Positions 1,318 through 51,642 of a stretch of DNA of 52,354 nucleotides are shown piece by piece (the stretch's first letter is position 1; the number at the start of each line of letters is the position of its first letter). Under the pieces are notes generated by a model that worked only from the letters and a program-made list of their open reading frames with translations, did no database searches and was not told the origin of the DNA. The stretch comes from Calothrix sp. PCC 7103. GTDB taxonomy: Bacteria; Cyanobacteriota; Cyanobacteriia; Cyanobacteriales; Nostocaceae. The stretch lies in the NCBI RefSeq assembly GCF_000331305.1, contig NZ_KB217478.1, positions 8,630,979 through 8,683,332 on the forward strand, given 5' to 3'. The position numbers and the translations under genes are program-made.

Positions 1318-4300
1318 TTAAGCATTTGGACTTACTAGTTTCTCTCCTTTCAGCATCCTAGACGCCGCTTCTAGCAATGCTTCTTCTAAGTAAGGTTTTG
1401 TAAAGTACCCACTGGCGCCTAAATTTATTGCCATTTGTTTATGTTTATCGGCGCCACGTGATGTCAGCATAGCTATAGGTAACTGGCTCAAGCTCGGTTC
1501 CTTAGATATACGAGATAATAATTCCAGTCCGTCGCAACGTGGCATTTCTATATCACAGAATACTATGTCACACGGTAAACCTGAACGTAATTTCTCCCAT
1601 GCTTCTTGACCATCACGCGCTTGTTCTACTCTATACCCTGCTTTATTAAACGAGAGTGATAATAATTCGCGTACTGTGATTGAATCATCTACTATCAGTA
1701 CAGTTGGGTCGATTTTGGCGCCCATTGACTCTGTACTATTACTTGCCGCTTCAAAGAATGGTACAGGACTTGCGAGCGCTGTACGTCCTTGGAATATATC
1801 GATTATTTCCAATACATCCGCTATGGGCATTATTCTACCATCCCCCAACACAGTGGCGCCTGCTACTCCTATTGGTTTCGGTGCCGGACCTTCAAACTGT
1901 TTAATTACTATTTCTTGCTCACTCAACACAGCATCTACTTGTAACCCTATTAATGTAGATGCCGAACGTATCACTACCACCGATACCATATCATCATCGC
2001 GCGTTCCCCCATACACACTTCCCCGACTTATTTGCCGATTTAATGTTAATAGTTCTTTCAACGGTTTAAATGGTAATTTAGTATCACGCCACAATATATA
2101 TAGTGTACCATCGGCATTTTTATGAATGCTTTTAGTTGATATATCTAATGTGTCTTCCACACCATCCATAGGAAATGCAATTCGCGCTTTATCCCATACA
2201 CAACACAATGCTTTACATATACTTAGGGTTAACGGTAATCGTATCGTAAAGTTTGTTCCTTTACCTAGCGTTGAATCTGTTGTTATTGTTCCTCTAATTT
2301 CACTAATACTAGTACGTACAACATCCATCCCCACACCACGACCTGCTAAATCATCGGCTTGGTCTTTTGTACTAAAATTAGGTTGGAACAATAATTCATA
2401 CACTTCAATCTTGGATATGGTTTTCGCAATTTCTGGTGTTATCAACCCGACTTTTATCGCTTTTTGTTTCACATAATCAGCATTAATACCCGCACCATCA
2501 TCCGATACAGATATTACAGTTTGGTTTCCTTGATGGAACGCACGCACTGTTATTACCCCTACAGGTTGTTTACCCTTACTCGTTCTTTCGTCTGGTGTTT
2601 CAATACCGTGAGCTATGGCATTATTGAGCATATGTATTAACGGGTCGGTCAAATGCTCTAATATCATTTTATCTATCAGCGTATCTTGACCTTCTATTAC
2701 TAACTCAACTTGCTTCCCACATTTAATCGCATTATCTCGCACACCCCGTTTTACCCGGTCGGTTACTTGCGAAAAAGGAACCATCCGTGCTTTCGTTAAA
2801 CCTTCTTGTAACTGTGTTGTTACCTGCCTAAATTGCCTTGCAACTCTCTCTGTTTCCTCGGTAACAAAATCAATATCACTCGCAGATTCGCGAACCCTAA
2901 CTATCAACTCAATCATCTCTTGAGATAATGTATGGAACGGTGTAAACCTATCCATCTCTAACTCAGAAAATCCTCTATCACTATCCTTATTACTTACTGG
3001 TGTACTAAAACCCCCATTATTACCATGTTTACGTGTTGCCAACAAAGATGCTTCTAGTAACGAACGTTCGTACAATTCCTGCATTCTGGCGCCAACATCA
3101 CTTAAATGGTGTATTTGTATAAGTAAATTATCCAGCGACTGACGTAAACGTTCCTGGTCTTGTTCGAGGGTGTTACGGTTAACCACCAACTCCCCAACCA
3201 AGTTACTCATATCATCCAGATGTTTTACAGACACCTTCATTAACTGTTCAAACCGTGCTGTACTGCGTCTATTAGTATTGCTTCGTTTAGAAACAGCATT
3301 GAGTGACTGTGATGTTCCAGCAATACTGTCACTTGATGCCAGCATTTTTTCTAAGTCGCCAAATTCATCTATCGCTTCTATATTATTACTGTTCGATGTA
3401 ACATTATTGTAAGCTGCTACATTTGAAGGCGCCTCGACTTCACTATTACCACTATCATGGACTAATAAAGCTTCGAGTGCGGCAAATTCGTCATCATCAA
3501 TTAAATCAGAATTAAATGCAATAGACAGCGGTTCGAGTGATTTATCGGGTGTAACAGCATACTCTGTTTCTTCTATAATGAAAGTTTCTTCTAAAAAGTT
3601 ATCCGATATTTCTGAGTTGTTGCTAACATTATTTACCCCATCTTCTAACTCAATGTTAAAGTCAGTATCATCTAAAATATCATCTAACCCAATATCAAAA
3701 CTTTGGACAATTGTTTCAGAAGCAACTTGCGATTCGACTTCAGATGTATCAAAGTTCCAAATATCCTTTATTTCCGGAATAGTACTTGATGTTTCGGTCG
3801 TAGAATGTATAAATTCTGGCTCGATGGGAGTAAAATGTAATTGCTGTAATTCCTCAACATCATCATTATTATAATCAGAAACAGCGGGCAGAAGTGACGG
3901 CGTTAACTCTTCAAATAAATCATTAATATCATCAAATGTTAGTGACAAATTCTCATCCGAATTCTCAAGCTCCATATAACCATCAAAAATATCATCACTC
4001 GCAGTTGCGGCAAATAAACTTGACTCTAATATAGATGCTACCGACTCTGAATCATCAACTAAATTTAATACAACTGACTCGGAACTAACCGACGACTCCT
4101 CCAAACTCCATTCATATGCAAACTCCCCCTCAGTTTGCTCCGAAAATTCTGGTACAATTGGACTAATTTGGGAATTTATTATATCATCAATACTAGCAAC
4201 GGACGGATTGGATAAGTTGTTATCAACAATAATTAACTCTTCAACATCATCAAGAGAACTACCAAACAACTGAACAACCGTTAACTCATCATTGCCCCTA

Positions 4301-5793
4301 TTAGGACGTTCATAGAAATTGGTACCAGAATCAATAACTAACAAATCATCGAGTTCGCTATTCGACGCATCAACATCATAACCAGCATCTGAGGAGTTTT
4401 CAATACCACTACTAACCGAAATTTCTGGAAGTTGTTCTACCGTTGTTATATCATCTAACTCCGAAGCATCATCCTTAAATAACTCGTCGAGTTCTGTAAG
4501 TTCAGCAATACCTACTTCTGGCCCATGATGGTCTTCATACGTACTCGTACCATTTAAAAAACTTAACTCATTAATATTCTCGGCAACTTTATCATCCGAG
4601 TCGTTTACATCTTGTATCTCTTGTATCTCTTGTATCTCTTGTATCTCTTGTATATTGTCAGATAATTCAAACTCATATTCAATACTATCAGAGTCTGAGG
4701 TAACTTCTATTTCTGTAATACCAGTAATATCTGTAACATCAATCTCAAAGTCCAATTGTTCGGTTATACCAAACAAAGAATTAATGTCATCCGAGTTGAT
4801 ATCATCGAAATCGATATCGTGTAAAAAAGGACTATGGTCAGATATTTGATTTAAATCAGTTATTTCAACTATAGAATCACTTACCGCCGTTTCTTCAAAG
4901 ACTTTATTATCAAAGAAGTCGCTGCTGAGTTCGAGCAGGGAAATATCTGGTACATTCTGGAGTGCTTCTAACTGTGGACTAATGGCAATGGAAGCATCGA
5001 GACCTGCAATTGCCAATTCAAGAGCAGTTTTAATTTCTGTAATAATAATCTTTGCTAAGGTCAAATAACTATTATCTGGGTTAGTCACCGCAGTTGCAGC
5101 ACCTCTACACAAATGACACCAATTAGTCAACTTTAAATCTTGTCCAATAATCACCAAATATTGTAAACAAGCTTCTAAACCCTTACGAGACGAGTCAGTT
5201 GCCTCTTGTTTAAATAATTGCAACATATCCCGAAGCTTTTGTAATACCCCACTTTGGAACTGTTGCCAATCTTTTTCTGTGCTAACGGGTGTTATTGTTG
5301 GGGAGACGTGATTCATCACGTCATTACTATGGGGTTCCAGGGTGCTGACTTTAATAGTGGTACCATTTTGTGTACCCAAAAGTGACTCTAAATGTTCATT
5401 CAACCATCCAAAGACGGGTTCAGCTTCACTCATCAAGTTAGCTGCTGCTTCTTCAGAAAGTCCAAACGGGCCGCTTAAATGTTCGAGTAAAGCTTTGAGA
5501 GTATCAGAAACACCAAGAAATAAAGACTCTAACTTTTGGTCAACAATAATTGGATTTTCTTTTAAAACCTTAAAGCAATCTTCCAAACGGTGTGCAGTCC
5601 GCTGAATACTATTTAAAGATAACATTGCGGCGCCACCTTTTATAGAATGAGCAGCCCGAAACACTTCGTTAATCATTTCCTGGTCATTTAAAGTTTCCTG
5701 AAGATTCAGCAAACCTTGCTCAATCGTATTTAAATGGTCTCTCGCTTCTTCTATAAAATAGCCTAATATACGTTGTTGTTGTTCAGGTAACAT
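1318..5793 (-). CDS. hmpE: HmpE: CheA-like hybrid histidine kinase of the hormogonium motility system
   Basis: 1491 residues. An N-terminal Hpt (P1) domain, residues about 5-110, holds the phospho-histidine in AAHSIKGGAAM (His49). A very long acidic Ser/Asp/Glu-rich linker, about residues 170-850, contains an IQE repeat. Then follow the dimerisation segment, the ATPase domain with N box (MLNNAIAHGIETPDER) and G box (GRGVGMDVVR), a CheW-like domain, and a C-terminal receiver with VLIVDDS and the acceptor Asp in FCDIEMPRCDG (about 1410). This is the CheA/PilL layout. As last gene of the hmp operon it should be coupled by HmpC to receptor HmpD and phosphorylate HmpB and its own receiver, steering type IV pili. 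The linker is unusually long. No clear ribosome site precedes the ATG. Confidence 0.93.
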   Translation of the reverse strand: MLPEQQQRILGYFIEEARDHLNTIEQGLLNLQETLNDQEMINEVFRAAHSIKGGAAMLSLNSIQRTAHRLEDCFKVLKENPIIVDQKLESLFLGVSDTLKALLEHLSGPFGLSEEAAANLMSEAEPVFGWLNEHLESLLGTQNGTTIKVSTLEPHSNDVMNHVSPTITPVSTEKDWQQFQSGVLQKLRDMLQLFKQEATDSSRKGLEACLQYLVIIGQDLKLTNWCHLCRGAATAVTNPDNSYLTLAKIIITEIKTALELAIAGLDASIAISPQLEALQNVPDISLLELSSDFFDNKVFEETAVSDSIVEITDLNQISDHSPFLHDIDFDDINSDDINSLFGITEQLDFEIDVTDITGITEIEVTSDSDSIEYEFELSDNIQEIQEIQEIQEIQDVNDSDDKVAENINELSFLNGTSTYEDHHGPEVGIAELTELDELFKDDASELDDITTVEQLPEISVSSGIENSSDAGYDVDASNSELDDLLVIDSGTNFYERPNRGNDELTVVQLFGSSLDDVEELIIVDNNLSNPSVASIDDIINSQISPIVPEFSEQTEGEFAYEWSLEESSVSSESVVLNLVDDSESVASILESSLFAATASDDIFDGYMELENSDENLSLTFDDINDLFEELTPSLLPAVSDYNNDDVEELQQLHFTPIEPEFIHSTTETSSTIPEIKDIWNFDTSEVESQVASETIVQSFDIGLDDILDDTDFNIELEDGVNNVSNNSEISDNFLEETFIIEETEYAVTPDKSLEPLSIAFNSDLIDDDEFAALEALLVHDSGNSEVEAPSNVAAYNNVTSNSNNIEAIDEFGDLEKMLASSDSIAGTSQSLNAVSKRSNTNRRSTARFEQLMKVSVKHLDDMSNLVGELVVNRNTLEQDQERLRQSLDNLLIQIHHLSDVGARMQELYERSLLEASLLATRKHGNNGGFSTPVSNKDSDRGFSELEMDRFTPFHTLSQEMIELIVRVRESASDIDFVTEETERVARQFRQVTTQLQEGLTKARMVPFSQVTDRVKRGVRDNAIKCGKQVELVIEGQDTLIDKMILEHLTDPLIHMLNNAIAHGIETPDERTSKGKQPVGVITVRAFHQGNQTVISVSDDGAGINADYVKQKAIKVGLITPEIAKTISKIEVYELLFQPNFSTKDQADDLAGRGVGMDVVRTSISEIRGTITTDSTLGKGTNFTIRLPLTLSICKALCCVWDKARIAFPMDGVEDTLDISTKSIHKNADGTLYILWRDTKLPFKPLKELLTLNRQISRGSVYGGTRDDDMVSVVVIRSASTLIGLQVDAVLSEQEIVIKQFEGPAPKPIGVAGATVLGDGRIMPIADVLEIIDIFQGRTALASPVPFFEAASNSTESMGAKIDPTVLIVDDSITVRELLSLSFNKAGYRVEQARDGQEAWEKLRSGLPCDIVFCDIEMPRCDGLELLSRISKEPSLSQLPIAMLTSRGADKHKQMAINLGASGYFTKPYLEEALLEAASRMLKGEKLVSPNA
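4611..4655 (-). repeat. 9-bp tandem repeat inside hmpE
   Basis: Four exact copies of CTTGTATCT (plus-strand reading) and a fifth with one change. It encodes the repeated tripeptide IQE in the acidic linker of HmpE. Because the unit is 9 bp, copy-number change keeps the frame. Confidence 0.9.
5305..5322. repeat. GACGTGAT-type palindrome inside hmpE
   Basis: GACGTGATTCATCACGTC is a perfect 8-bp-arm palindrome in the hmpE linker (protein NDVMNHVS). It has the same core as the intergenic hairpin at 43788-43815, so it looks like a dispersed repeat that landed in frame in a tolerant linker. Confidence 0.6.
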
Positions 5794-5949
5794 AAATTTA
5801 AATAGTAAAAAGTGCGCTCGTGAGTCGTGCTGTGTAAGTAAGAAGTAAAGAGTTTTGATTTTAAAGTTTTATAGTTTTGAGTAAGAAATGAAGAGTTTTG
5901 AGTGAGGAATAATAAATTAAAAATTATAACTTTGTAACTTTCTTCTCTT

Positions 5950-5976
5950 CTCACTCAGCACTCAGCACTTTCCACT
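5950..5976. repeat. CTCAGCA heptamer repeat in the hmpD-hmpE gap
   Basis: Tandem CTCAGCA heptamers just after the hmpD stop codon, followed by a degenerate unit. Related to the longer inverted arrangement at 46042-46107. The rest of the 184-base hmpD-hmpE gap is AT-rich with no gene. Confidence 0.65.
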
Positions 5977-5977
5977 C

Positions 5978-8959
5978 TCATCTGGATTCTGCGGTTTCTA
6001 CACGGAAGCGTTCTACCGACGCAATTAAGTCGCGTGATACACCCACCAAGTGTTGCAAAGCTCCAGATACTCGCTGTGCTTCTTGGGATGTCTCTTGAGC
6101 AGTTAACTCTACCGACTGCATAACCTGTGCAACTGCACGCGATGTTTCGGTTTGGTCTACGGTGTCAGCGGTGATGGAACGTACTAATATATCGATACGG
6201 TTGGCAACCTGGATAATGTTGTCGAGCGAGCGTTTTGCTTCTTCGGCAAGTTTTGTACCTGTAATTACCTGCTGTGTTCCTTCTTCCATCGCTGTCATTA
6301 CAGAACTCGTCTCACTTTGAATTTGCATCACAATTTGTTCTATCTCTTTGAGAGATTTCGCTGACTTATCCGCTAACTGCCTAACTTCATCTGCGACAAT
6401 TGCAAATCCTCGTCCTGCTTCTCCTGCTCGCGCTGCTTCTATCGAAGCGTTTAATGCCAGCAAATTAGTTCGGGAAGCAATTTGAGAAATTAATGCGACA
6501 ATTTTAGAAATTTCTTGCGAAGATTCTGCCAACCTCTTAACTTTGCGCGTGGTTTCTGCCACTGTTTCCCGAATTTCTAAAATACCCGCTACGGTGTTTT
6601 CTACAGCTTCGCCACCTTTAAGGGCAATAGAACTTGCATCGCGAGCTACTGTCTCAGCTTCGCGTGCTGCTTCTGCCACCCGTTGTATAGAATCTGTCAT
6701 TACCTGTACAGAGTTGAGTGTAACAGCGAGTTCTTCAGCTTGACGTAATGCGTCTGTAGAAAGCGCGCGGGCAAATGTTTCAGAATTTGTGGCGCCTTTA
6801 GTAACCTCCTTCGCGGCAACTTTAACTTGTTGGACAATATCCCGCAGGTTTTGAATCGTTAAATTGAAAGCATCGGCAACGGCGCCAAGTACGTCAGCTG
6901 TTACTTCAGCTTGTACAGTTAAATCACCCCGCGCGGCGCCTTCCACATCATCAAGTAAGCGAATTACCTGGCGTTGCAAGTTTTCTTTCGCTTCTTCTTG
7001 TTCTTGTGCCTTGCGTGTAGCTTCATTCGTCGTGGTAAAAATAACACGAGTCATCTCATTAAAACCCGCAGCCAACTGTCCAAATTCATCTTCAGAATAT
7101 ACAGTTGCTTGCACTCCCAAATTACCTTGACGTACACTGTCAAACTGACTTTGTAAATTTTTAGTGGTGCGACGAATTTGTTTAAACGTCAAACTACCCA
7201 TCACCCCAGTTGTAGTAAAAGAAACAACTCCCGCAGCTAATGCCATTGCCCAACCAGTTCGACTAATGGCGCTACGTTCAGTTCCATTCTGTGATAAGTT
7301 AGCAGCACCAAAGCTGACAGTCGCAACAACAATGGCACTGACAACACCTACTGTTGCTGCAATAAACCATTGTTTACTTTCTAAAGGAGCATTTTCTAAT
7401 GGCGCCAGTATACCTTGTTCTATACTTACTTGTGGTTCTAAGCGGCTAACATCAGACTGAGTAAATATAGGTACAGCTTCTTGAGAGGAAGTGATACTAA
7501 ATAACTCTGAGTCACGTGTAGCTTCTGCTTTATTTAATTTAGGAGAAGTACCGATACTTTGTGTGTTCGATTTTATCGGGGTATTAAAAGACCCAGAATG
7601 TAAAGATTGGGAACCACCAAAAGTAGATTCGTGGCTCATTTCAAACCCTGGAATGTTACCAAGGTCATCGAATGCATCAAAATCTTCTAAAAACTCTATA
7701 TTGTTAGAATTTTTGTTGACACTATTGTTTGAACTCGAACTTTTTGATTCAAAAGAAGACACACTGTTATTATCAGATGCTTTCTCAATATCTGGGGTGC
7801 CGCTATCTGACCCAAACGCTGATTCAAACGCTTCAAAATCAAAGCTGTCATCCATATCGAAGCTGCTAGCATTCGATGCCGGATTACTCGCAAGCACGCT
7901 CTTATCTTGGGTTGCATCGATACTAAACGTCGAAAACTCACCCCGAATTCGTTGTTGTGTTTCTGTAGTTAAATTTGCACTACTTTCATGAGCATCTAAA
8001 ATACTATCAAACGTTGTAGAATTTAATGTATCAGTCTTAATTTCTGCTTTGGGAGTTGCATTATTATCATTAATATAAAGAGTTACATCATCATCATTAT
8101 TTACACCATTTAAATCAGAATTCTGATGATAAAATGATTCTGATTCCATTACAAAGTCAGGTATATCAAATGGTTCGGAGCTATTAGTAGTCTTTAGATT
8201 ATTCCCATTACCAGTATCTAAGTTATTGCTTGGTGTCAGATCAGATAGCCAAAATGCAGGTAATTCTAGTTCGGTTTTATCTTCAAAAGCGTTGTTAGGA
8301 ATTGCATCTTCTGAATAATTAGCAAATGGGTCATTATTGCTGGGAGTATCGCTAACTTTGTAACTAAATAAGGTGCTGTCGGTGGGTATATCAAAGGGAT
8401 TGCTTGATGGTAGGTTGTTATCACTAGAATCACTGAAGTGATTATTATCAATATTGGAATCACTGAAGTGATTATTACTATTCAATGCGCTCAGGTCAAA
8501 ACCGCTTTTAGATATATCCATATCACCAAATGGAGAAGCCGAAGCGGTAGAGTCTGGATATGGTGCCACAGCATCAAACTCGCTAGCATCAACCAAATCA
8601 GAGAAATTAGCCGACTCGTTATTTGTAAGCACCTCGTCGGTTATATCCGACTCTTTAAAGTTGGTGTCGGTATTAGAAAATTGTTGGTAGTGACTAATAT
8701 TTTCTAAACCAGTTTTTGCAAAAGCGGTAATTTCTGGGTCACTAGTAATTTCTAAAACTTTTTCGTACTCAACTGTCGCAACATCATATTTTTGCAACAC
8801 ATAATAAACATGTCCCCGTAGTAAATGTGTATTAGGGTCATGCGGCGCCATAGTCACTACAGTATCAACCAAGGTGGCAGCCTGGTGATAATTTTGTTGA
8901 GCATAGGCATTAACAGCCTGTTGATATATCTTTTCGTAATCATCAATACTAGTAGTCAT
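5978..8959 (-). CDS. hmpD: HmpD: methyl-accepting chemotaxis-type receptor of the hormogonium system
   Basis: 993 residues. The N terminus is TPR-like (residues about 5-95, with [17 protein letters not shown]). It is followed by about 400 residues of Asn/Ser/Asp-rich low-complexity sequence, two membrane segments (about 530-590), a HAMP region and a C-terminal MCP signalling domain. The domain's highly conserved tip reads [20 protein letters not shown], about residues 835-855. This is the PilJ/HmpD type receptor; with the TPR and linker in the cytoplasm, the periplasmic loop is very short. A strong GGAGGC precedes the ATG. It sits between hmpC and hmpE and should anchor the CheW/CheA array. 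Short direct repeats encoding NNHFSDS lie near residue 165-180. Confidence 0.93.
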
Positions 8960-8981
8960 TTATAGCCTCCGTCTAATCTTA

Positions 8982-9512
8982 TTAACCTGCCCACCGCGCA
9001 GAACGCAAAATAGCAGTTTGGTCTAGCAATCGTAAGCTAGAATTACCTTCTGTATTGGAATACCACTCACCTCGTAAAAAAGGCGCTGCTATATCAGGAA
9101 TATTGGTTGGAGCTAAAAGATGCTGCACCAAAAGCCAATCCATACCACCAATAGAATCAACAGCCAAACCAACAATTGTTTCTTGTTCTTCAATGGCAAT
9201 TACTGGAATTTCCGCGCGGTCGGTATTTAACGGAGTAGCATCACCCAAAAACTGTCCCAAATCAGCGACCCAAATAACACGACCTCGTAAATTTAGAGTA
9301 CCCAAAAGTAAAGGAGAAGCATTAGGAATAGGGGTAATTCTATCGGGACTAAGTTCAATAACCTCGCGAATACCAGTAGCGAGTAAAGCGAACTCTTGGT
9401 GCGAAGGAATAAAGAACCTTAAATGTAACTCACCTTCGGGACTTGATACTTCTAACTCTCGACCCAACTGGTAATCTGAGTCTCCAACTAAAAAATCTGG
9501 TTTTAGTGTCAT
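8982..9512 (-). CDS. hmpC: HmpC: CheW-like adaptor
   Basis: 176 residues from the ATG at 9512, which encodes MTLKPDFLVGDSDYQLGREL. I chose this start because it lies just after the hmpB stop (9520) and has GAGGA about ten bases upstream. An upstream start at 9590 would overlap hmpB by 71 bases and add residues unlike the family. A single CheW fold follows, with typical elements FALLATGIREVIEL, LLGTLNLRGRVIWVADL and VIAIEEQETIVGLAVDSI. It links receptor HmpD to kinase HmpE. Confidence 0.9.
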   Translation of the reverse strand: MTLKPDFLVGDSDYQLGRELEVSSPEGELHLRFFIPSHQEFALLATGIREVIELSPDRITPIPNASPLLLGTLNLRGRVIWVADLGQFLGDATPLNTDRAEIPVIAIEEQETIVGLAVDSIGGMDWLLVQHLLAPTNIPDIAAPFLRGEWYSNTEGNSSLRLLDQTAILRSARWAG

Positions 9513-9519
9513 ATGTGAC

Positions 9520-9894
9520 TCATCCTCGCAGTAATTGTTTAACAGTACCCACCAACTCAGTCGGTTGAAAAGGTTTAGCAATATAGGCATCGGCGCCTTG
9601 TTTCATACCCCAATAGCGGTCAAACTCCTCCCCCTTACTTGAACACATTACGACAGGGACATTTTGAGTCTTTGGGTCAGACTTGAGGCGCCGACACACC
9701 TCGTAACCATTCATTCTAGGCATAACAATATCCAAAACCACCAAATCGGGGGGTTCGCTTAAAATCGCCTCAAGCGCCTCCACCCCATCTGCGGCATGGG
9801 TAACAATCATCCCGCTCGCCTTCAGGAGGTCAGTAATCATCTCCCTCTGCGCGATACTATCTTCCACAATCAGAACTGTACTCATATACCCCAT
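9520..9894 (-). CDS. hmpB: HmpB: CheY/PilH-like single-domain response regulator
   Basis: 124 residues, one receiver domain. The acidic pocket reads VLIVEDS, the phospho-acceptor is the Asp in LVVLDIVMPRMNGYE (Asp57), and the Thr/Ser and Lys switch positions are in VVMCSSKGEEFD and YIAKPFQP. All catalytic residues are intact, unlike HmpA next door. Two start codons are possible: 9894, with AGAGG six bases upstream, and 9885 (MSTVLIVEDS, more typical length). Likely target of HmpE phosphorylation. Confidence 0.92.
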   Translation of the reverse strand: MGYMSTVLIVEDSIAQREMITDLLKASGMIVTHAADGVEALEAILSEPPDLVVLDIVMPRMNGYEVCRRLKSDPKTQNVPVVMCSSKGEEFDRYWGMKQGADAYIAKPFQPTELVGTVKQLLRG

Positions 9895-9988
9895 TACTAC
9901 CTCTTTGTATGTAGATGTCCCTATAAATATGGAACATTCCCTGCCCCGCTTGATTTATGTATAAATTTATTCTATTCCTTGGCAAATT

Positions 9989-11260
9989 TTATAAACGATG
10001 GGTTTTTGTTTGTTCTGTGATATTATTTTTTACCCTATATTGAGTGTAATCAACAAGTCCTGTATTTTTATTGTTCCCGAAAGCAGGGCTATTCAGGCAC
10101 TGTTTGACTATCATTACTAAATCAGCATTGTTAAAAGGTTTACTTAAGAACCCTGTAGCTCCCGCCATTTTGGCTTTAGCAAGAAGAGAAAAATTCTTTT
10201 GGTCAGTCAGCATAATAATTGGTAAGTGCCGAAATGCTTGACACGAACGTAACATTGCACAAATCTCATAGCCATTCAATTCTGGCATTGTTAGCTCAGA
10301 TAGAATTAAATTAGGCTTCAGGGTAAAGATACCAGTGAGCGCTTGTATGGGATCTGAGAAAACGCTAGCATTAAAACCTTCTGACATAAAAATAGACTCT
10401 ACCGAGCTACGTGTACTTGTTTCTGAGTCGATGAAAACAATAGTTTTTTTTGTGGCTATTTGATTCTCCTCTATGGTTGGTTCATTTTCTGCTAAACCTA
10501 TTGTATTCGTATATACAAGATGTACCCACCCTTGTAGCACATAAGGATATAAAGCCTTAGCGACAGTCAATATATCGCGATTAAGGTAGCGTGCGAGTTG
10601 ACGAAGCGAAGTTTTTCCATCAGCCCACTGTTTGAGTTTGTTCGCAGTAGCTATTGGCACAGAAGACTGTAGTCGAACGACAGATGCGAGCATCGGCAGT
10701 TGGTCAGGAGATTGGATATAGGGGTAAAGCTGTTTCCAGTTTTGTACTTGTCTGATGGTTTGTAATGTAAGTGGTGCAGTCTTCCAGGTGTTTAATACAG
10801 GAGCAAGGGGGGAAGTTAGCTCAAAAAGAAAATTTCCACGTTTTAAGTTCAGTAAGTCAAAGATTGTTTCGCGTATAAGACCTTGAATAATGGTACGAGC
10901 TTGAGTTGTGTTAATAATATTTTGTCCGAGCAACGCCCATAAGTAACTATATTCTGGCAACGAATACGATCCACTAAAAGTTAGTTGATCTTGTCGTCGT
11001 CGTACCTGGACATCAAATATATTGTTTGTGAACTTATCAATAGGGGGTTTGACTCGATAATGTCGTAAATAATCATCAAGTCTTGATAGGTTTTGCACTC
11101 CATTGCTAGCATATGCAATTTGACCATTGAGAAAAAACATGAACCAAGATTCGGTTGGGTTGGGTTCCAACGAGGATACAAACAGTATCCCGGTTCGCTG
11201 TCCTAGCTCAATCAATTGCAGGATACTGCGAATATCAATTTCATCTAAATTTCCCTGCAT
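9989..11260 (-). CDS. hmpA: HmpA: PatA-like response regulator
   Basis: 423 residues. The N-terminal PATAN/DUF4388 domain (MQGNLDEIDIRSILQLIELG, residues 1-110) is followed by a middle helical region and a C-terminal receiver (about 270-395). The receiver is degenerate: the phospho-acceptor position reads LILSELTMPELNGYE, with Glu at about residue 321 where Asp is expected. The N-terminal acidic pair is FIDSE rather than VDDS. The Thr (IIMLTD) and Lys (FLSKPF) switch positions are kept. It is the first gene of hmpABCDE, as in Nostoc punctiforme and the pilG-pilL cluster of Synechocystis. The Glu may lock an active-like state or abolish phosphorylation. Confidence 0.92.
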   Translation of the reverse strand: MQGNLDEIDIRSILQLIELGQRTGILFVSSLEPNPTESWFMFFLNGQIAYASNGVQNLSRLDDYLRHYRVKPPIDKFTNNIFDVQVRRRQDQLTFSGSYSLPEYSYLWALLGQNIINTTQARTIIQGLIRETIFDLLNLKRGNFLFELTSPLAPVLNTWKTAPLTLQTIRQVQNWKQLYPYIQSPDQLPMLASVVRLQSSVPIATANKLKQWADGKTSLRQLARYLNRDILTVAKALYPYVLQGWVHLVYTNTIGLAENEPTIEENQIATKKTIVFIDSETSTRSSVESIFMSEGFNASVFSDPIQALTGIFTLKPNLILSELTMPELNGYEICAMLRSCQAFRHLPIIMLTDQKNFSLLAKAKMAGATGFLSKPFNNADLVMIVKQCLNSPAFGNNKNTGLVDYTQYRVKNNITEQTKTHRL

Positions 11261-13559: not shown

Positions 13560-13569
13560 TTGTATTATA

Positions 13570-13689
13570 GCCCTGGCACCGAGCAATTGTTGCAGGAGAC
13601 AACTCTCCAACTATCGTAGCCGCTGCGGCGTTTCACAACTGAGTTCGGGATGGTATCAGAGTGGTTCCACCACGCAAAAAGCACCAGGA
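13570..13689 (-). rRNA. rrf: 5S rRNA
   Basis: Reverse complement starts CCTGGTGCTTTTTGCGTGG and contains GGAACCACTCTGATACCATC, CCGAACTCAGTTGTGAAAC and the closing GGTGCCAGGGC. These are hallmarks of cyanobacterial 5S rRNA. Ends are estimated to within a few bases. It is the last gene of the minus-strand rRNA operon. Confidence 0.92.
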
Positions 13690-13693
13690 AAAA

Positions 13694-13785
13694 CTGGAGG
13701 AGGAGGGGAAGCGGGGAGGGGGAGATACGGGGAAATATACTTTCTTCTCCCCCACTCACCCACTCAGCTTGTCCCCCACTCCTAA
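13694..13785. repeat. G-tract/C-tract repeat inserted in the 23S-5S spacer
   Basis: Plus strand runs GGAGGAGGAGGGG...GGGGAGGGGGAG, then after a short AT stretch TTCTCCCCCACTCACCCACT. The two halves can form a strong G/C hairpin (GGGGGAG with CTCCCCC). Cyanobacterial C-rich heptamer repeats look like this. It sits inside the rRNA transcript between mature 23S and 5S. Confidence 0.65.
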
Positions 13786-13824
13786 AACCCTGAAGACTGC
13801 ACAGTGACGCTTTTGAATTGTTTT

Positions 13825-16646
<2,822 letters not shown>

Positions 16647-16977
16647 AATTCTATCAATTCAAAGGATTATCTGTAATTCAATACCCGTGCCTTCTTGTTC
16701 TAATTACGAAAGTAATTCAACTCAACACGGTTACTGCCTACAATTTGCGTCACTATGCAGTTTTCAAGGTTCTTACTGGATATACATCCAGCAGGCTCAG
16801 TTATATTACTAACCAAAGTTGCTGACTGTATATATGCTTGTTTTTATTTGTTGTTAATCCGAATCCGATAATAGTTTGAAGCCAAAGCCAATTCTCTCTC
16901 GACCTAGGTGATGACCTTCTTGTTGTTTTTTAACGTACTGAAGTACGTATTACGACAAGGAACGGTAGGTCTCCCTA
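16647..16977 (-). other. 16S-23S internal transcribed spacer without tRNA genes
   Basis: About 330 bases. The minus strand starts with a D1-D1' helix (GACCTACCG ... CTAGGTC) and contains a cyanobacterial box A (GAACCTTGAAAACTGCATAG, about 16753-16772). Neither tRNA-Ile nor tRNA-Ala is present. Many heterocystous cyanobacteria carry some rRNA operons with and some without the tRNA pair, so other copies may differ. Confidence 0.88.
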
Positions 16978-18463
<1,486 letters not shown>

Positions 18464-34251: not shown

Positions 34252-36846
34252 GTGGAGTCTCGATACAACCCAGCAGACATTGAGGAAAAATGGCAAAACA
34301 CATGGACTGAACTTGGCTTAGACAAGACTGTCACCGATAGCGACAAGCCAAAATTTTATGCGCTGTCTATGTTCCCGTATCCTTCGGGAAGCTTGCACAT
34401 GGGTCATGTCCGCAACTACACCATAACTGACGCTATCGCGCGCCTCAAAAGAATGCAAGGGTATCGGGTACTACATCCGATGGGTTGGGATGCTTTTGGT
34501 TTACCTGCGGAAAATGCTGCTATTGACAGGGGTGTTCCTCCAGCAAAGTGGACTTATCAAAATATTGAACAAATGCGGCAACAGTTAAAGCGTCTCGGTT
34601 ATTCAATTGACTGGGACTGTGAAGTTGCTACCTGTTCGCCCGATTACTATAGATGGACACAGTGGATTTTCTTACAGTTTTTTGAAGCAGGTTTGGCTTA
34701 TCAAAGAGAAGCTGCGGTAAATTGGGACCCTGTAGACCAAACTGTGATAGCAAATGAACAAGTTATTGATGGACGTTCGTGGCGTAGTGGCGCCATTGTT
34801 GAGCGAAAATTATTACGGCAATGGTTTTTGAAGATTACTGATTATGCCGAGCAGTTATTGAACGACCTCGATAAGTTGCCAGGATGGCCCGAGCGTGTCA
34901 AATTAATGCAGGCTAACTGGATAGGTAAATCGACAGGTGCCTATTTAGAGTTTCCCATAGTTGGCAGCGATGAAAAAATAGCTGTATATACAACACGTCC
35001 TGATACAGTTTACGGTGTAAGCTATGTAGTGTTGGCGCCAGAACATCCATTAACAGAGAAAGTTACAACAAAAGAACAAAAAGTAGCAGTTGAAGGATTC
35101 GTACAGGAAGTTAGCAACCAAAGCGAGATGGAACGTACTGCTGAAGATAAACCTAAACGCGGTATATCTACAGGTGGTAAGGCAATAAATCCATTTACAG
35201 GAGAAGAAATTCCTATTTGGATTGCTGATTATGTATTGTATGAGTATGGTACAGGCGCCGTAATGGGTGTACCTGCACATGATGTACGCGATTTTAAATT
35301 CGCTAAAGACCAAAATTTGGCAATTAAAGTTGTCATTGTACCGGAAGAAACAGGCATCCTGCCTGTTCCACAAGACAAATCACAAGAGGGAGAGTTGAAA
35401 GCTGCTTATACTGAAGCTGGTGTGTTGGTAAATTCACAGCAATTTGATGGCATGGCCTCGGGTGATGCTAAGAAAGCTATAGTTGAGTATGCAGAGCAAC
35501 GAGGTTATGGTAAAGCGCGTATTCAATATCGTTTACGTGATTGGTTAATTTCGCGTCAGCGTTACTGGGGCGCCCCTATACCTATTATTCACTGTCCCAA
35601 CTGCGGCGCCGTTCCAGTTCCTGAAGAAGATTTGCCTGTACAGTTACCTGATAATGTTGAATTAACAGGTCGTGGTGGTTCGCCATTGGCTTCTTTGGAA
35701 AGTTGGAAAAATGTACCTTGTCCAAGTTGTGATACACCAGCACAACGAGAGACCGATACGATGGATACTTTTATTGATTCATCGTGGTACTTCTTACGTT
35801 TTACCGATGCCAAAAACGAGAAAAAAATATTTGAAGCCAGTAGAGTCAACGATTTTATGCCCGTTGACCAATATGTCGGTGGTATTGAACATGCGATTTT
35901 ACACTTGTTGTACTCGCGGTTCTTTACTAAAGTATTGCGCGATAGAGGTTTATTGAACTTTGACGAACCCTTCCAAAGATTGTTAACACAAGGAATGGTA
36001 CAAGGTTTAACTTATATGAACCCCAATAAATCAGATAAAGATAAGTGGGTTCCTACAAGCTTAGTTAATGCAGCAGACCCTCGCGACCCCAAAACAGGCG
36101 AACCTTTACAGCTTGTTTACGCTACCATGTCTAAATCTAAAGGTAACGGTGTGGCGCCAGAAGATGTTATCGCTAAGTATGGTATTGATACCGCGCGCAT
36201 GTTTATATTGTTCAAAGCACCACCAGAAAAAGATTTGGAATGGGACGAAGCGGATGTTGAAGGACAATTTCGTTTCTTGAATAGGGTATGGCGCCTTGTT
36301 ACAGAGTATATTGCTGCTGGTAACACCAAAAAACAAGTCAACAAAAACGAATTAAGTAAATCAGAGAAAGATTTAAGACGAGCAATTCATATTGCCATTA
36401 AAGAGATTACAGAAGATATCGAAGGTGGATATCAGTTTAATACCGCAATTTCTGAGTTAATGAAGTTGAGTAATGCACTTGCTGATGCTGACTGCAAAAA
36501 TTCGCCTGTATTTGCTGAAGGTATAAACACTTTAATTGTGTTATTGGCGCCGTTTGCTCCTCATATTGCTGACGAGTTATGGCATCAATTAGGCAATAAA
36601 GATTCAGTACACACTCACTCATGGTTAAAATTTGAGCCAGAAGCCTTAGTTGTAGATGAAATTACCTTAGTAATTCAAATCAACGGCAAAAAACGCGGAG
36701 ACTTACAGGCGCCTGCCACTTTAGATAAAGCTGGGTTAGAACAATATGCGCGTGACTCTGAAGTAGCACAGCGTCATCTCGAAGGCAAAGAGATAAAAAA
36801 GGTTATTGTAGTACCTGGTAAATTAGTCAACTTCGTTGTTGGGTAA
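34252..36846 (+). CDS. leuS: Leucyl-tRNA synthetase
   Basis: 864 residues, GTG start with AGGAG upstream. Class I motifs: HIGH as [12 protein letters not shown] (about 45-56) and KMSKS as [10 protein letters not shown] (about 622-631). CP1 editing domain 220-420, then zinc-like Cys pairs (CPNCGA, CPSCDTP) and a C-terminal domain ending [15 protein letters not shown]. Unusual: a palindromic repeat sits in frame at about residues 366-377, adding [13 protein letters not shown] inside the CP1 region. Confidence 0.97.
35350..35366. repeat. ACAGGCATCCTGCCTGT palindrome inside leuS
   Basis: Same hairpin as the intergenic copies at 36902-36919 and 50905-50921. Flank TTCCACAAG matches the complement of the flank of the 36.9-kb copy, so it is a real copy of the dispersed element, not chance. 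It encodes TGILPVP. Confidence 0.8.
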
Positions 36847-43544: not shown

Positions 43545-43784
43545 ATGACTGTAAATCAAAGTGAAAAACGTCTCCTGTTATTTGTAACTTGCTGTGCAAT
43601 GGCAGGGTTAGTAGTGGGTGGAGTATCAGGTTTTACGAATAAGCCTAGTTGTGATGATAATCATATCAGTCAATGTTTGACAGAAGATACATTATATAGA
43701 ACTGTTAAGGGTATGACGACTGGATTGGGTGGAGGAGTTGGCGCCGCGTTTGCTATCCATGTTGGGATGGGTTATAAAGATTGA
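43545..43784 (+). CDS. Small membrane protein, 79 aa
   Basis: I start at ATG 43545 (MTVNQSEKRLLLFVTCCAMA) because AGAGGA precedes it; a GTG at 43500 is open but lacks a site. Two hydrophobic segments (about 9-29, and a Gly-rich one at about 55-73, TTGLGGGVGAAFAIHVGMG) flank a short loop with two Cys (SCDDNHISQC). Family not recognised. Followed directly by a strong hairpin. Confidence 0.6.
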   Translation: MTVNQSEKRLLLFVTCCAMAGLVVGGVSGFTNKPSCDDNHISQCLTEDTLYRTVKGMTTGLGGGVGAAFAIHVGMGYKD

Positions 43785-43787
43785 TGA

Positions 43788-43815
43788 GTAGAGACGTGAT
43801 TAATCACGTCTCTAC
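43788..43815 (+). terminator. Perfect hairpin GTAGAGACGTGATT...
   Basis: 28-base perfect palindrome with arms GTAGAGACGTGATT and complement, followed by ATTTTG. One of the commonest cyanobacterial spacer repeats; here between convergent genes (small membrane protein and nitroreductase) where it can end both transcripts. Confidence 0.65.
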
Positions 43816-43829
43816 ATTTTGATTTGATA

Positions 43830-44489: not shown

Positions 44490-44526
44490 ACACAATAATC
44501 ACGATAGTTCCTTACTAACTATAACG

Positions 44527-45717: not shown

Positions 45718-46041
45718 TATTTATTCTTAAAATTGAGAATAATATTATTTTTATTGCAATTATTTTAGCTGTGTAACTGTCATTAGCAATAAATAAAAAA
45801 TATTTTATCTATCTTAAGGAGTAATTAGAACAGTCTTTAACTAAGTTAATGTGAATTAAGAGCTATGCAGCGATAAGTAATGCTAATCCCAAAGGTAGAT
45901 AGGTATACAGTAGTATTGATGTTAAAATTGATATGTTAGAGTAAGTCAGCCTAATTCGACAATATAAATTATACGAGTCAAGACTAAGTATATAAAAAAA
46001 TTGTCGGAACGGAGGAACCAATTTTGGGGCGTACCTTTTTA
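45718..46041. other. Spacer between histidine kinase and ABC importer
   Basis: AT-rich, no gene seen. Contains the leftward kinase promoter region; no symmetric operator recognised. Confidence 0.5.
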
Positions 46042-46107
46042 AAGTGCTGAGTAGAAAGTGCTGAGTTCTGAGTAATAGTTAACTCAGCACTCAGTACTCG
46101 GAACTTT
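46042..46107. repeat. Inverted CTCAGCA heptamer repeat
   Basis: AAGTGCTGAGTAGAAAGTGC and further GCTGAGT units on the left, ACTCAGCACTCAGTACTC on the right, forming a long imperfect hairpin. Same heptamer as at 5950-5976. Confidence 0.7.
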
Positions 46108-46114
46108 TAACTTT

Positions 46115-46200
46115 AAAGAGGGGAGTATCTCTCAACTCTAGCCCGTCAGCTAACTTCGTAGGCATTGAGAGGAAACTGAAAAGATAGCACTACATTATAT
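46115..46200 (+). promoter_or_regulatory. Structured leader, possible yybP-ykoY (manganese) riboswitch-like element
   Basis: GGGGAGTAT at 46120 and CGTCAGC at 46144 resemble the two conserved loops of yybP-ykoY RNAs. CTCTCAA (46129-46135) can pair with TTGAGAG (46165-46171), and GTATCT with AGATAGC downstream. It lies 85-165 bases before the ABC permease start. The resemblance is from memory of the family consensus and the stem order is not fully canonical, so this is a candidate only. An orphan left from a lost gene is possible. Confidence 0.4.
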
Positions 46201-46282
46201 TTTTGTAGCAATCTTAATCAGGTATCCTCATCTGGTACTGCTCGGATTTTTTGTACCTACTAAAATCTGTTGAGGTTGCTCT

Positions 46283-47122
46283 GTGATATTCCAATTAAAT
46301 TTAGCAGCAATTGTGGCGGTTGCTGGGCAAGCGGTATGGCGCCGTTCTAAACCCTTCATTTTACGCGATAGTCTTCTGCTGCCTTGTTTGGGGTTTTTGG
46401 GGGTCATTTTGTTATGGTGGCTAATTGCAATTTTAAACCCCCAACTAATGCCAACTCCAGCAGAGGCATTAGTTGCAAATCTTGACTATATAATGAATCC
46501 TTTTTTTGAACGCGGCCCTGGTAACTTGGGAATCGGTTGGTTACTAATAGCTAGTTTGCGTCGCGTGTTAATCGGATTTGGACTAGGTGCCTTAGTTGCG
46601 ATTCCTATCGGGTTTTTAGTTGGTATGTCCAAGCAAGCGATGATGGCACTTAATCCTGTCATTCAAATCTTTAAACCTGTATCACCTTTGGCTTGGCTAC
46701 CAATTTCTCTGGCTATTTTCAATCTTGCAGACCCATCAGCGATTTTCGTAATTTTCATTACTTCGCTTTGGCCTACTATCATTAATACAGCTTTGGGAGT
46801 ATCGAGTGTTCCTAAAGACTACATTGATGTCGCGCGAGTTATAGAAATGCCGCGTTGGCGCCGAATCATCAAAATCATCCTACCTGCAAGTTTGCCTTAT
46901 ATTTTTACGGGTTTACGTATCAGCTTGGGGATCGCTTGGCTTGTAATTGTGGCAGTAGAAATGTTAACAGGTGGTGTTGGGATTGGTTTTTTTGTGTGGG
47001 ACGAATGGAGTCGTCTGAATTTAAACTCTGTTTTTCTGGCAGTGTTTGTAATAGGTTTAACTGGACTATTACTTGATTACGCTGTTGGCAAACTCCAAGA
47101 ATTTGTTACTCATCGTAAATAG
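46283..47122 (+). CDS. ABC importer permease, NrtB type
   Basis: 279 residues from a GTG with GAGG eight bases upstream. Six or so membrane helices; the ATPase-contact EAA loop reads VARVIEMPRWRRIIKIILPA (about 185-204). WWLIAILNPQLMPTPAEA is the conserved N-terminal block of the nitrate/cyanate/bicarbonate permeases NrtB/CynB/CmpB. First gene of a three-gene operon with a binding protein (12-base gap) and ATPase. The substrate cannot be fixed between nitrate, cyanate, bicarbonate or sulfonate-like anions. Confidence 0.88.
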   Translation: MIFQLNLAAIVAVAGQAVWRRSKPFILRDSLLLPCLGFLGVILLWWLIAILNPQLMPTPAEALVANLDYIMNPFFERGPGNLGIGWLLIASLRRVLIGFGLGALVAIPIGFLVGMSKQAMMALNPVIQIFKPVSPLAWLPISLAIFNLADPSAIFVIFITSLWPTIINTALGVSSVPKDYIDVARVIEMPRWRRIIKIILPASLPYIFTGLRISLGIAWLVIVAVEMLTGGVGIGFFVWDEWSRLNLNSVFLAVFVIGLTGLLLDYAVGKLQEFVTHRK

Positions 47123-47134
47123 GAATTTAAAAGT

Positions 47135-48544: not shown

Positions 48545-48575
48545 TTAGTACACTATCTTCGTATATAGGTATACA

Positions 48576-49412: not shown

Positions 49413-49462
49413 TTCAAATTTTAAATGTCATCAAAATTAAAAAAAGGCAAAAAGTGCAAAAC

Positions 49463-49489
49463 AACTACCTTGAATAGGTAGTTTTTTTT
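49463..49489 (+). terminator. Importer operon terminator
   Basis: AACTACCT, loop TGAAT, AGGTAGTT and a run of eight or nine T. Classic intrinsic terminator 50 bases after the ATPase stop. Confidence 0.9.
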
Positions 49490-49552
49490 AACTAATATGA
49501 GACCATCTTCTTAGAGATTCTCATAAATTTGATACTTAATTAGGGGTATTCG

Positions 49553-50893
49553 ATGGAAAATTGGCAAGCATTAGTCAGCATTATCACATTTTTGTGCGTT
49601 ATTTTTTTAATCATGACTGAGTGGGTACACTTGACAATTGCAACTTTATTAGGTGCATTATTGCTTGTATTTACCAATGTCATGACTTTGAATGACGCTG
49701 TTGGTTACATTGGTAACAGTCACGGGACTTTGGCATTATTTTTTGGTGTAATGGTTCTAGTTCGAGCATTTGAACCAACTAAAATTTTTGAGTATTTAGC
49801 TACACAATTAGTAATTTTAGCCAAAGGTGAAGGTAAGCGGTTGCTTTTAGGTATTGTTATAATTACAACTCCGATTTGCGCTGTCTTACCTAATGCAACT
49901 ACAGTTATGTTACTGGCGCCATTAATTCCTCCAATGGCAGAAGAAGTAGGGGTGAATTTTGTACCATTACTTTTATTACTAGTATTTGTTGCGAATAGTG
50001 CAGGACTGTTAACAATTGTTGGTGACCCAGCTACATATATTGTTGGTGATGCGATAAATCTAAGTTTTACCAATTACTTGTATCGCTTAAGTTTCGGTGG
50101 AGCAATTGCTATTTTGACGGTTACTGCCACCTTACCATTTTTATTTCGTAAAATTTGGAATACAAAACTTGATACTTTACAAGAACTACCGCACCCCAAA
50201 ATTAATCATCCACGTGTTTTAGCATTAGGAGGATTAATAGTAGCTCTAGTTTTACTATTTTTTGTCATAGGTGAAAATTTACCTGTACCAGTTTCACCTG
50301 CTGCGGTTGCTCTTTTAGGCGCCGGATTAGCAATGCTACTTGCACACAATAGTAAAATTGATACGGTGAACAATATTCTTCGTGATGTTGACTGGAGTAC
50401 ATTGATATTTTTTATGAGTATTTTTGTCTTAATAGGAGGCTTAGAAAAAACAGGAGTAATTAACAATTTATCTGGAGTGCTTGCAACAATACTGGGAAAA
50501 AATATTGCTTTAGGTTCAATATTTTTAATATTTTTTGTGGGATTAATATCAAGTGTTGTACCGAATATTCCATTAGTAGTAGCAATGGTGCCGCTGCTTA
50601 AACAGTATGTAGTTAATATTGGTATGGCTCCTGCCGAAATTCTTCAATCTGGTTTTAATGGACAATTTCCTCCAGAAGTACTACCTTTGTTTTATGCAAT
50701 GATGTTTGGTGCCACATTGGGAGGTAATGGTACATTGGTTGGTGCATCATCAAATATTGTAGCAGCTGGTGTATCTGAACAACATGGGCGCCGTATTTCG
50801 TTTAAAACGTTTTTGCGCTATGGTATTCCAGTAATGGTGCTACAACTGATAACTTCAGCAATATATGTATTCTTCCGCTTCTTGCGTACATGA
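49553..50893 (+). CDS. ArsB/NhaD-superfamily anion permease
   Basis: 446 residues, about eleven membrane helices, two homologous halves each with a re-entrant loop: VLPNATTVMLLAPLI with NSAGLLTIVGDPATYIV in the first, and VVPNIPLVVAMVPLL with GATLGGNGTLVGASSNIV in the second. These Gly/Asn-rich loops are the family signature (IT superfamily, P-protein/ArsB/CitM). Substrate unknown: arsenite, carboxylate or Na+/H+ exchange are all precedents. Separated from the importer by a terminator, so transcribed on its own. Confidence 0.9.
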   Translation: MENWQALVSIITFLCVIFLIMTEWVHLTIATLLGALLLVFTNVMTLNDAVGYIGNSHGTLALFFGVMVLVRAFEPTKIFEYLATQLVILAKGEGKRLLLGIVIITTPICAVLPNATTVMLLAPLIPPMAEEVGVNFVPLLLLLVFVANSAGLLTIVGDPATYIVGDAINLSFTNYLYRLSFGGAIAILTVTATLPFLFRKIWNTKLDTLQELPHPKINHPRVLALGGLIVALVLLFFVIGENLPVPVSPAAVALLGAGLAMLLAHNSKIDTVNNILRDVDWSTLIFFMSIFVLIGGLEKTGVINNLSGVLATILGKNIALGSIFLIFFVGLISSVVPNIPLVVAMVPLLKQYVVNIGMAPAEILQSGFNGQFPPEVLPLFYAMMFGATLGGNGTLVGASSNIVAAGVSEQHGRRISFKTFLRYGIPVMVLQLITSAIYVFFRFLRT

Positions 50894-50897
50894 TATC

Positions 50898-50927
50898 AAG
50901 TGGCACAGGCAGGATGCCTGTGCTACA
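50898..50927. repeat. GGCACAGGCAGGATGCCTGTGC palindrome
   Basis: Third copy of the ACAGGCA-TCC-TGCCTGT hairpin family (arms at 50905-50911 and 50915-50921), between convergent genes, where it may serve as terminator. Confidence 0.75.
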
Positions 50928-51642
50928 AAGATTTAATAGATAAAACCCGATAGCCTGCACCTTGAGGCAAACATTGACCATTAATATCAACAGGACAAGC
51001 ACTACTTCCTTGAGCAGAAGGACGAATACCTTCAACAAACACAGCTTTTATTTCAACCTGTCGATTATGAAACGACTGTAACTGTATACGAGAAACTTGC
51101 TCAGACGGACGTAATACTATTTGACTACCTGAGCGAGAATCAGTAATTAGAAAAAACTCTTCACCCAAATAAGCTTCTTGTGACATAACCGGGGGAATCT
51201 CTTTATAAATTAGTTTTCCACGTAAAGAATATACTTTTGATTGTCTCCATAACCCTAAACGTTTATTTTTAGCAGTGGCCTCAGCAATTAAATATTGACT
51301 CCTGCTTTCAAAACAATTATTTAAAGTTCTTCGCTCAACTACAGCGGCGCCTTCTTCTACCATGCGAAGATTTATAGACTTATTATCTACAAACACCTCA
51401 CCAAGTATAGTACTATTTTGTACTGATTCTGTAGTTTTGACAACTACGGGAGTATTTGGCGCAAGTATCTTTCTTAAGCTTTCTGCTGCTTGCTTACGCT
51501 GTCCAGTTGTTTCAGGTACGGTAATACATGCAAGTGTGACGGTAACTGGTTTACCTATATTATCTTGAATCTGAATAGTTCTGCCATCAACGAAACCAAC
51601 AATATGACCTAGTATTAAAATTAGTTGTTGAAAAAATTCCAT
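50923..51642 (-). CDS. Staphylococcal-nuclease-like (SNase) protein
   Basis: 239 residues from ATG 51642 (MEFFQQLILILGHIVGFVDG); a start 39 codons upstream is open but gives an atypical extension. SNase fold: DGRTIQIQD ... VTLACITVPETTGQRKQAAE, then GEVFVDNKSINLRMVEEGAA and AEATAKNKRLGLW. The usual GDGDT is DGRT and the canonical catalytic Arg/Glu set is partly changed, so activity is doubtful. The C-terminal 90 residues are an extra region (FFLITDSRSGSQIVLRPSEQ; VDINGQCLPQGAGYRVLSI). Hydrophobic N terminus may anchor or export it. Confidence 0.8.
   Translation of the reverse strand: MEFFQQLILILGHIVGFVDGRTIQIQDNIGKPVTVTLACITVPETTGQRKQAAESLRKILAPNTPVVVKTTESVQNSTILGEVFVDNKSINLRMVEEGAAVVERRTLNNCFESRSQYLIAEATAKNKRLGLWRQSKVYSLRGKLIYKEIPPVMSQEAYLGEEFFLITDSRSGSQIVLRPSEQVSRIQLQSFHNRQVEIKAVFVEGIRPSAQGSSACPVDINGQCLPQGAGYRVLSIKSL

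What the first reader, a model, noticed from the sequence alone, without database searches (positions are those of the whole stretch)
1318..51400. GGCGCC is a highly iterated palindrome, and classical HIP1 is missing
Hand counting gives about 80 GGCGCC hexamers in the window, nearly one per 600 bases, spread over genes and spacers on all sides and absent from the rRNA genes. With roughly 40% GC and independent bases, about 3-5 would be expected. I saw no copy of the HIP1 octamer GCGATCGC, which in many filamentous cyanobacteria is this frequent. Flanking bases vary (TGGCGCCA, AGGCGCCT, CGGCGCCT, GGGCGCCC), so the core is the hexamer. This suggests a lineage-specific substitute for HIP1, possibly tied to a methyltransferase that recognises GGCGCC. 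Some cyanobacteria are known to have HIP variants; whether this one is described I cannot say.
Basis: partly seen in the sequence, partly recalled or inferred. Interest (0 to 1): 0.8.

Follow-up and report, generated by a model that had tools for sequence, protein, structure and literature searches.

The report
GGCGCC replaces HIP1 in Calothrix clade
This cyanobacterium's genome is peppered with the short palindrome GGCGCC in place of the usual cyanobacterial repeat HIP1; that was already reported for one strain in 2015, and here it turns out to be shared by its whole genus, kept at the level of the DNA rather than the proteins, and accompanied by a stand-alone methyltransferase that probably marks the same sequence.

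Summary
The genome has 17,704 GGCGCC (1,528/Mb; reversed control 8) and 163 HIP1. It is already in print: Elhai 2015 (PMC4390886) described GGCGCC as the alternate HIP of Calothrix PCC 7103, almost certainly this genome. New here: (1) 7 of 7 held genomes of the genus have it and nearly lack HIP1, so it is a clade trait; (2) 7 of 7 carry an m5C methyltransferase of the BsaHI/HindV (GRCGYC) type and 0 of 7 the matching restriction enzyme; (3) the hexamer is kept as DNA: where Gly-Ala is kept, GGC GCC survives in 88-97%, other codings in 40-53%, and 106 of 202 Gly-Ala pairs are GGCGCC against 2.7 expected; (4) losses are mostly transitions at the central C/G, the base that M.BsaHI methylates. A possible second case (G059) proved to be a different motif, so the statistical link to the enzyme rests on one origin. 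Methylation was not observed; biased repair and selection are not separated.

The parts
1414..51346 (.). 80 dispersed GGCGCC hexamers (palindromic, so on both strands)
   Evidence: 80 seen, 5.03 expected
34252..36846 (+). Leucyl-tRNA synthetase gene with 9 GGCGCC sites (34789 to 36708), used as anchor for named relatives
   Evidence: Pfam tRNA-synt domains; sites; orthologues in named genus members keep most of the 9, ten outgroup loci have none of them as GGCGCC
13571..18463 (-). 5S, 23S and 16S rRNA genes, free of GGCGCC
   Evidence: Rfam against the site list

Best explanation
GGCGCC is the alternate highly iterated palindrome (HIP) of this Calothrix/Dulcicalothrix genus and stands where relatives have HIP1. 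SHOWN: it is genome-wide in 7 of 7 genus genomes; HIP1 is nearly gone in all 7; most sites are shared among the genus members aligned; in genes the hexamer is kept as DNA beyond what the protein needs; losses are mostly C-to-T or G-to-A at the central CG. INFERRED: a solitary m5C methyltransferase of the BsaHI/HindV type, in all 7 genomes without its restriction partner, methylates the central C (GG-mC-GCC); deamination turns sites into GGTGCC/GGCACC; a methylation-linked process, most likely biased mismatch repair as Elhai proposed, restores or keeps them; the set was built once, around the root of the genus, after HIP1 was lost.
For: Counts in 7 of 7 genus genomes; the other 68 genomes of the family in the order sample have 0-530 GGCGCC and at least 1117 HIP1. 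Solitary enzyme in 7 of 7, PF09519 in 0 of 7. M.BsaHI methylates the central C of GRCGYC (PMC2413257). Retention of G000 sites 56/67 in G389 against 543/1364 for hexamers with five G/C; codon-matched retention 32/36 against 8/17 in G389, 56/58 against 18/34 in G388; 106 of 202 Gly-Ala pairs, 2.7 expected. 24 of 37 terminal losses are single central transitions, 11.8 expected from GCG-to-GTG elsewhere. GGTGCC/GGCACC is the only one of 9 near-miss classes in excess (237 against 166), the other 8 at 0.22-0.98 of expectation.
Against: No methylation data. The enzyme family is common (104 of 388 genomes), and 30 HIP1-rich genomes with it but without PF09519 have no GGCGCC excess to speak of (median 26.6/Mb). 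Counted by origin, only this genus combines the enzyme, HIP1 loss and a plain GGCGCC HIP; G136 has the enzyme and HIP1 loss but GCCGGC, G059 a different motif. Only 2 terminal gains against 37 losses, so a ratchet now making new sites is not seen. In G000, G353 and G380 recent loss is not below control (27/173 against 282/2286). Outside ORFs retention is hardly above control (13/19 against 0.59 in G388; 0 of 4 in G390). Spacing is close to random.
Confidence: 0.6

Rival explanations
1. The sites are kept by natural selection for a function of (methylated) GGCGCC itself, for example as a strand mark or a recombination or chromosome-organising site, rather than by biased repair.
For: Long-term retention far above control while recent losses are seen is also what weak purifying selection gives. 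Elhai argues for selection on HIP1 itself.
Against: Spacing is near random (1330 gaps, CV 0.985, mean 629; only gaps under 50 bases are scarce); 0 of 14 aligned HIP1 positions of relatives have GGCGCC within 20 bases, so no fixed place matters.
Confidence: 0.3
2. The methyltransferase is incidental: GGCGCC rose for another reason and the enzyme, widespread in the order, is there by chance.
For: Enzyme in 104 of 388 genomes; the link rests on one origin once G059 and G136 are examined.
Against: 7 of 7 genus genomes have it and none has the nuclease; decay is centred on the base such an enzyme would methylate.
Confidence: 0.15
3. Codon usage, base composition or a mobile repeat explains the count.
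For: 40 of 69 genic sites are in the Gly-Ala frame GGC GCC.
Against: GGC and GCC are the rarest Gly and Ala codons elsewhere in these genes; 106 seen, 2.7 expected; the reverse pair GCC GGC 0 of 217. All frames and spacers are hit and flanks vary. Reversed control CCGCGG: 8 in the genome.
Confidence: 0.01

Closest known systems
Alternate HIP GGCGCC of Calothrix PCC 7103 and Calothrix D253 (Elhai 2015, PMC4390886)
   Same: Same hexamer, same top 8-mer CAGGCGCC, same HIP1 density (14 per Mb), GATC depletion, two GRCGYC-type methyltransferases: almost certainly the same genome
   Different: Nothing in the motif. Here it is seen in 7 genus genomes, whereas Elhai calls exceptional HIPs sporadic, not in clades; 2 of 7 genomes (G388, G390) show only one enzyme copy at E<=1e-50, so the second copy he thought may have been critical is not general
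HIP1, GCGATCGC
   Same: GC-rich palindrome, roughly one per kb, linked to solitary methyltransferases
   Different: Other sequence and other methyltransferase; does not sit at the same places (0 of 14)
BsaHI/HgiDI/HindV restriction-modification systems (GRCGYC; PMC2413257)
   Same: Methyltransferase relatives in 7 of 7 genus genomes; in relatives the gene adjoins an RE_HindVP nuclease
   Different: No RE_HindVP in 0 of 7 genus genomes searched means solitary enzyme; one target version, GGCGCC, is over-represented instead of avoided

Membership tests
Alternate HIP (class named by Elhai 2015) | GC-rich palindrome at about 500-2500 per Mb genome-wide | tested here: met
   1528/Mb in G000; about 1150-1711/Mb in the 7 genus genomes
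Alternate HIP (class named by Elhai 2015) | HIP1 low or nearly absent | tested here: met
   163 in 11.58 Mb; 31-163 in the 7 genus genomes
Alternate HIP (class named by Elhai 2015) | a methyltransferase predicted to recognise the site | tested here: met
   family of L005/L006 in 7 of 7; target predicted by linkage to PF09519 in relatives, not assayed
Alternate HIP (class named by Elhai 2015) | sites methylated in the cell | not testable with these tools
   no methylation data; only the decay spectrum
HIP1 | the octamer GCGATCGC in high number | tested here: not met
GRCGYC (BsaHI/HindV-type) m5C methyltransferase | C5 cytosine methyltransferase fold | tested here: met
   PF00145, TIGR00675 over its cut-off
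GRCGYC (BsaHI/HindV-type) m5C methyltransferase | relatives encoded beside an RE_HindVP nuclease | tested here: met
   69 of 104 genomes with the enzyme also have PF09519; 21-62 bases apart in the five pairs I compared (G220, G181, G201, G048, G322)
GRCGYC (BsaHI/HindV-type) m5C methyltransferase | TL-motif surroundings (R about 11 and G/A about 9 residues upstream) | tested here: inconclusive
   by eye L005 reads RRG and L006 RRA before ..PSPTI; the residue count may be off by one from the paper's, and the paper's alignment figure is not held
GRCGYC (BsaHI/HindV-type) m5C methyltransferase | methylates GRCGYC in vitro | not testable with these tools
   no assay
GRCGYC restriction-modification system | cognate restriction enzyme (PF09519) present | tested here: not met
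   0 of 7 genus genomes

The most novel reading that the evidence does not exclude
A DNA methylation mark writes and rewrites genome sequence: GG-mC-GCC decays to GGTGCC by deamination and is turned back by methyl-directed repair, so that a solitary methyltransferase has imposed a self-restoring hexamer on thousands of places per genome, overriding codon choice, for the lifetime of a genus of at least seven species.
Probability: 0.25. Interest if true: 0.8.

Novelty: already known. Interest (0 to 1): 0.45.

Why it matters
Why HIP sequences exist is unsettled in the paper that names them. A genus of seven held genomes that swapped one HIP for another gives natural replicates: sites can be aligned, losses and gains counted, and the methyltransferase link tested by methylome sequencing or deletion. 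The codon-matched test shows that the hexamer rather than the protein is what is kept in genes, and the loss spectrum names the base to assay.

Tried and rejected
G136 as a further GGCGCC case: its 872 copies are no more than composition gives (14 seen, 23.1 expected in 94 kb); it is rich in GCCGGC instead, 89 against 33.9. G059 as an independent case: raw count 2497/Mb, but in a 366-kb sample GGCGCC is only 2.7 times expectation, while CGGCGCCG and CAGCGCCG are 16 and 15 times and AGCGCC 4.2 times; TGGCGCCA is depleted. G170 and G008 from raw counts: 24 seen, 16.3 expected; 24 seen, 27.0 expected; both HIP1-rich. The g66 genomes are HIP1-rich and were not sampled. Positional replacement of HIP1: 0 of 14 (about 1 expected by chance), so no sign of it. 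Regular spacing: not found. A GGCGCC-only methyltransferase: not identified; G000 has 15 PF00145 matches, and apart from L005 and L006 I assigned no target. L010 (370 aa, in G000, G353 and G380, 61% to L043 in G170) was not followed further. NCBIfam names these enzymes no more closely than the dcm superfamily.

Limits: hexamer counts overlap and genomes are related, so P values are optimistic. The 298-case loss count and the per-genome count 34 of 286 differ in how gaps were treated. One search covers 6 of the 9 near-miss classes. The cuts of 50 HIP1/Mb and 1000 GGCGCC/Mb were chosen after seeing the counts. Among the 69 genomes counted as having both genes, a number of the PF09519 matches are fragments or carry stops. 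In one search at most five candidates per genome were scored. Of 14 HIP1-poor genomes without a solitary enzyme, G192, G275 and G287 were judged on genome counts only, the samples of G271, G310 and G340 are 4-15 kb, and G204 and G100 pooled show 20 GGCGCC against 11.1. The order sample is 388 genomes drawn from a larger group.

Full report
OBSERVATION. It has the highest z of all 6-mers under a third-order model, and the ten highest-scoring 8-mers listed all contain it or most of it, led by CAGGCGCC. GATC (24 seen, 128 expected) and GGCC (18, 73) are depleted. The genome (11.58 Mb, 12 contigs) has 17,704 GGCGCC against 8 of the reversed control and 163 GCGATCGC.

ALREADY IN PRINT. Elhai 2015 (PMC4390886; I saw the abstract, passages, the end of section 2.2, sections 2.3, 2.5, 2.6, 3.4 part 1 of 2, and 3.5) reports GGCGCC as the alternate HIP of Calothrix PCC 7103 (HIP1 14 per million, top 8-mer CAGGCGCC, GATC at 16% of expected, two GrCGyC methyltransferases, a truncated CGATCG methyltransferase) and of 19 kb of Calothrix D253, and proposes GmeC-directed mismatch repair as cause. 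G000 matches in HIP1 per Mb, top 8-mer, GATC depletion (19% in the window) and number of such enzymes, so it is almost certainly PCC 7103; the tools hide its name, so this is inference. Literature searches of the held open-access library showed no other paper on GGCGCC as a HIP; subscription papers are mostly not held.

CLADE TRAIT. The genus has 7 held genomes. GGCGCC/HIP1: G000 17704/163, G388 19393/58, G380 15449/88, G389 18131/125, G390 7475/147, G353 14889/31, G391 20380/66. In the order sample of 388, the other 68 genomes of the family have 0-530 GGCGCC and at least 1117 HIP1. By name: loci of Calothrix sp. FI2-JRJ7, Calothrix sp. HK-06 and Dulcicalothrix desertica PCC 7102 (LeuRS 94-96% identical) have 43, 36 and 49 GGCGCC and no HIP1 in 22.6 kb; the nearest outgroups, Calothrix NIES-4101 (87%) and C. 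elsteri CCALA 953 (85%, 4 kb), have 0 GGCGCC and 21 and 5 HIP1. Shared contig lengths suggest that G391 is Calothrix PCC 7716 and G380 is HK-06. This differs from Elhai's statement that exceptional HIPs occur sporadically, not in clades.

METHYLTRANSFERASE. G000 has 15 PF00145 matches. L005 (319-aa frame) and L006 (304-aa frame), 59% identical, belong to a family found in 7 of 7 genus genomes, with 1 to 4 matches each, fragments included, and in 104 of 388 order genomes at E<=1e-70. In 69 of the 104, RE_HindVP (PF09519) is present too; in the five pairs whose coordinates I compared the genes lie 21-62 bases apart. BsaHI and its relatives act on GRCGYC, and M.BsaHI methylates the central C (PMC2413257, parts 1-3 of 4 read). 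None of the 7 genus genomes has PF09519. L005 and its G353 counterpart share a neighbour that looks like a RuBisCO-like protein (named by eye). In G380 the likely counterpart is split over two contig ends (95-96% identity).

ASSOCIATION, A WEAK POINT. Among 69 genomes with both genes the GGCGCC median is 2.4/Mb (maximum 37.5); among 30 with the enzyme alone and HIP1 at 50/Mb or more it is 26.6 (maximum 70); of 5 with the enzyme alone and HIP1 under 50/Mb, G000, G353, G380 and G059 exceed 1000/Mb and G136 does not; of 14 HIP1-poor genomes without a solitary enzyme none does. But G059's excess is a different motif: CGGCGCCG and CAGCGCCG, 16 and 15 times expectation, at GC 0.538. So the plain GGCGCC HIP with HIP1 loss and a solitary enzyme has one origin in this sample, this genus, and the association is not statistically established here.

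MAINTENANCE. I aligned 120 kb around L005 of G000 with six genus genomes, and the window with three named loci over 14.8-17.6 kb. G000's sites are intact in 90/111 (G353), 71/87 (G380), 106/119 (G388), 99/115 (G391), 56/67 (G389) and 21/35 (G390), where hexamers with five G/C are intact in 66, 67, 62, 61, 40 and 29%, and all-G/C hexamers in 65, 59, 56, 68, 40 and 41%. Where Gly-Ala is kept in both genomes, GGC GCC is kept in 56/58, 53/58, 32/36 and 15/17 (G388, G391, G389, G390), other codings in 18/34, 14/27, 8/17 and 2/5. In 105 predicted genes 106 of 202 Gly-Ala pairs are GGCGCC (2.7 expected from codon use) and the reversed pair is 0 of 217. Outside ORFs retention is hardly above control: 13/19, 10/16, 4/7 and 0/4 against 59, 60, 38 and 29%. 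So the hexamer is kept as DNA in genes; for spacers this is unproven.

DECAY. Where all other aligned genomes (three or more) have the site, a core genome has lost it in 37 of 298 cases; 24 are single central transitions (GGTGCC 11, GGCACC 13), 11.8 expected from GCG-to-GTG elsewhere. The four inner bases together were expected to give 22.0 losses. Only 2 terminal gains were seen, both from hexamers differing at several bases. In 857 kb of genus sequence GGTGCC/GGCACC is the one near-miss class in excess (237 against 166), the other eight are at 0.22-0.98; in 306 kb of relatives it is at 0.47. Of 94 such near-misses with two or more other genomes aligned, 64 face a GGCGCC in another genome, against 41 of 179 for five other classes. 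This is the footprint expected of m5C at the central C. Loss differs between lineages: 27/173 in G000, G353 and G380 (control 282/2286), 7/113 in G388 and G391 (control 185/1465); the groups differ at P 0.016. Against an active ratchet: hardly any new sites. For restoration: long-term retention is far above control (G389) although recent loss is not below it in three of five genomes. That last step is inference.

VERDICT. An alternate HIP already described in this strain, here extended to a genus trait with a solitary GRCGYC-type methyltransferase and a base-resolved pattern of upkeep and decay. The finding as given is already known; the extension makes a methylation-driven origin of HIPs testable.

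Noticed in passing
window 45992-46179 (+): c-di-AMP riboswitch (ydaO/yuaA leader, RF00379, 52.6 bits) just upstream of the ORF starting at 46283.
   Followed up: no
whole window; genus loci L199-L237: GATC and GGCC are strongly depleted in the window (24 against 128 and 18 against 73) and scarce in the genus loci too.
   Followed up: partly
   Followed up: no
   Followed up: partly
   Followed up: partly
   Followed up: no
L001 and L002 (G000 C7:7282329 and C7:3460727): Two m5C methyltransferases 76% identical to each other in this genome, best matches in the other genomes compared only about 40-45%; target unknown.
   Followed up: no
window 1318-11260 (-): Chemotaxis-type gene run: CheA-like hybrid kinase, MCP, and a response regulator with DUF4388.
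   Followed up: no
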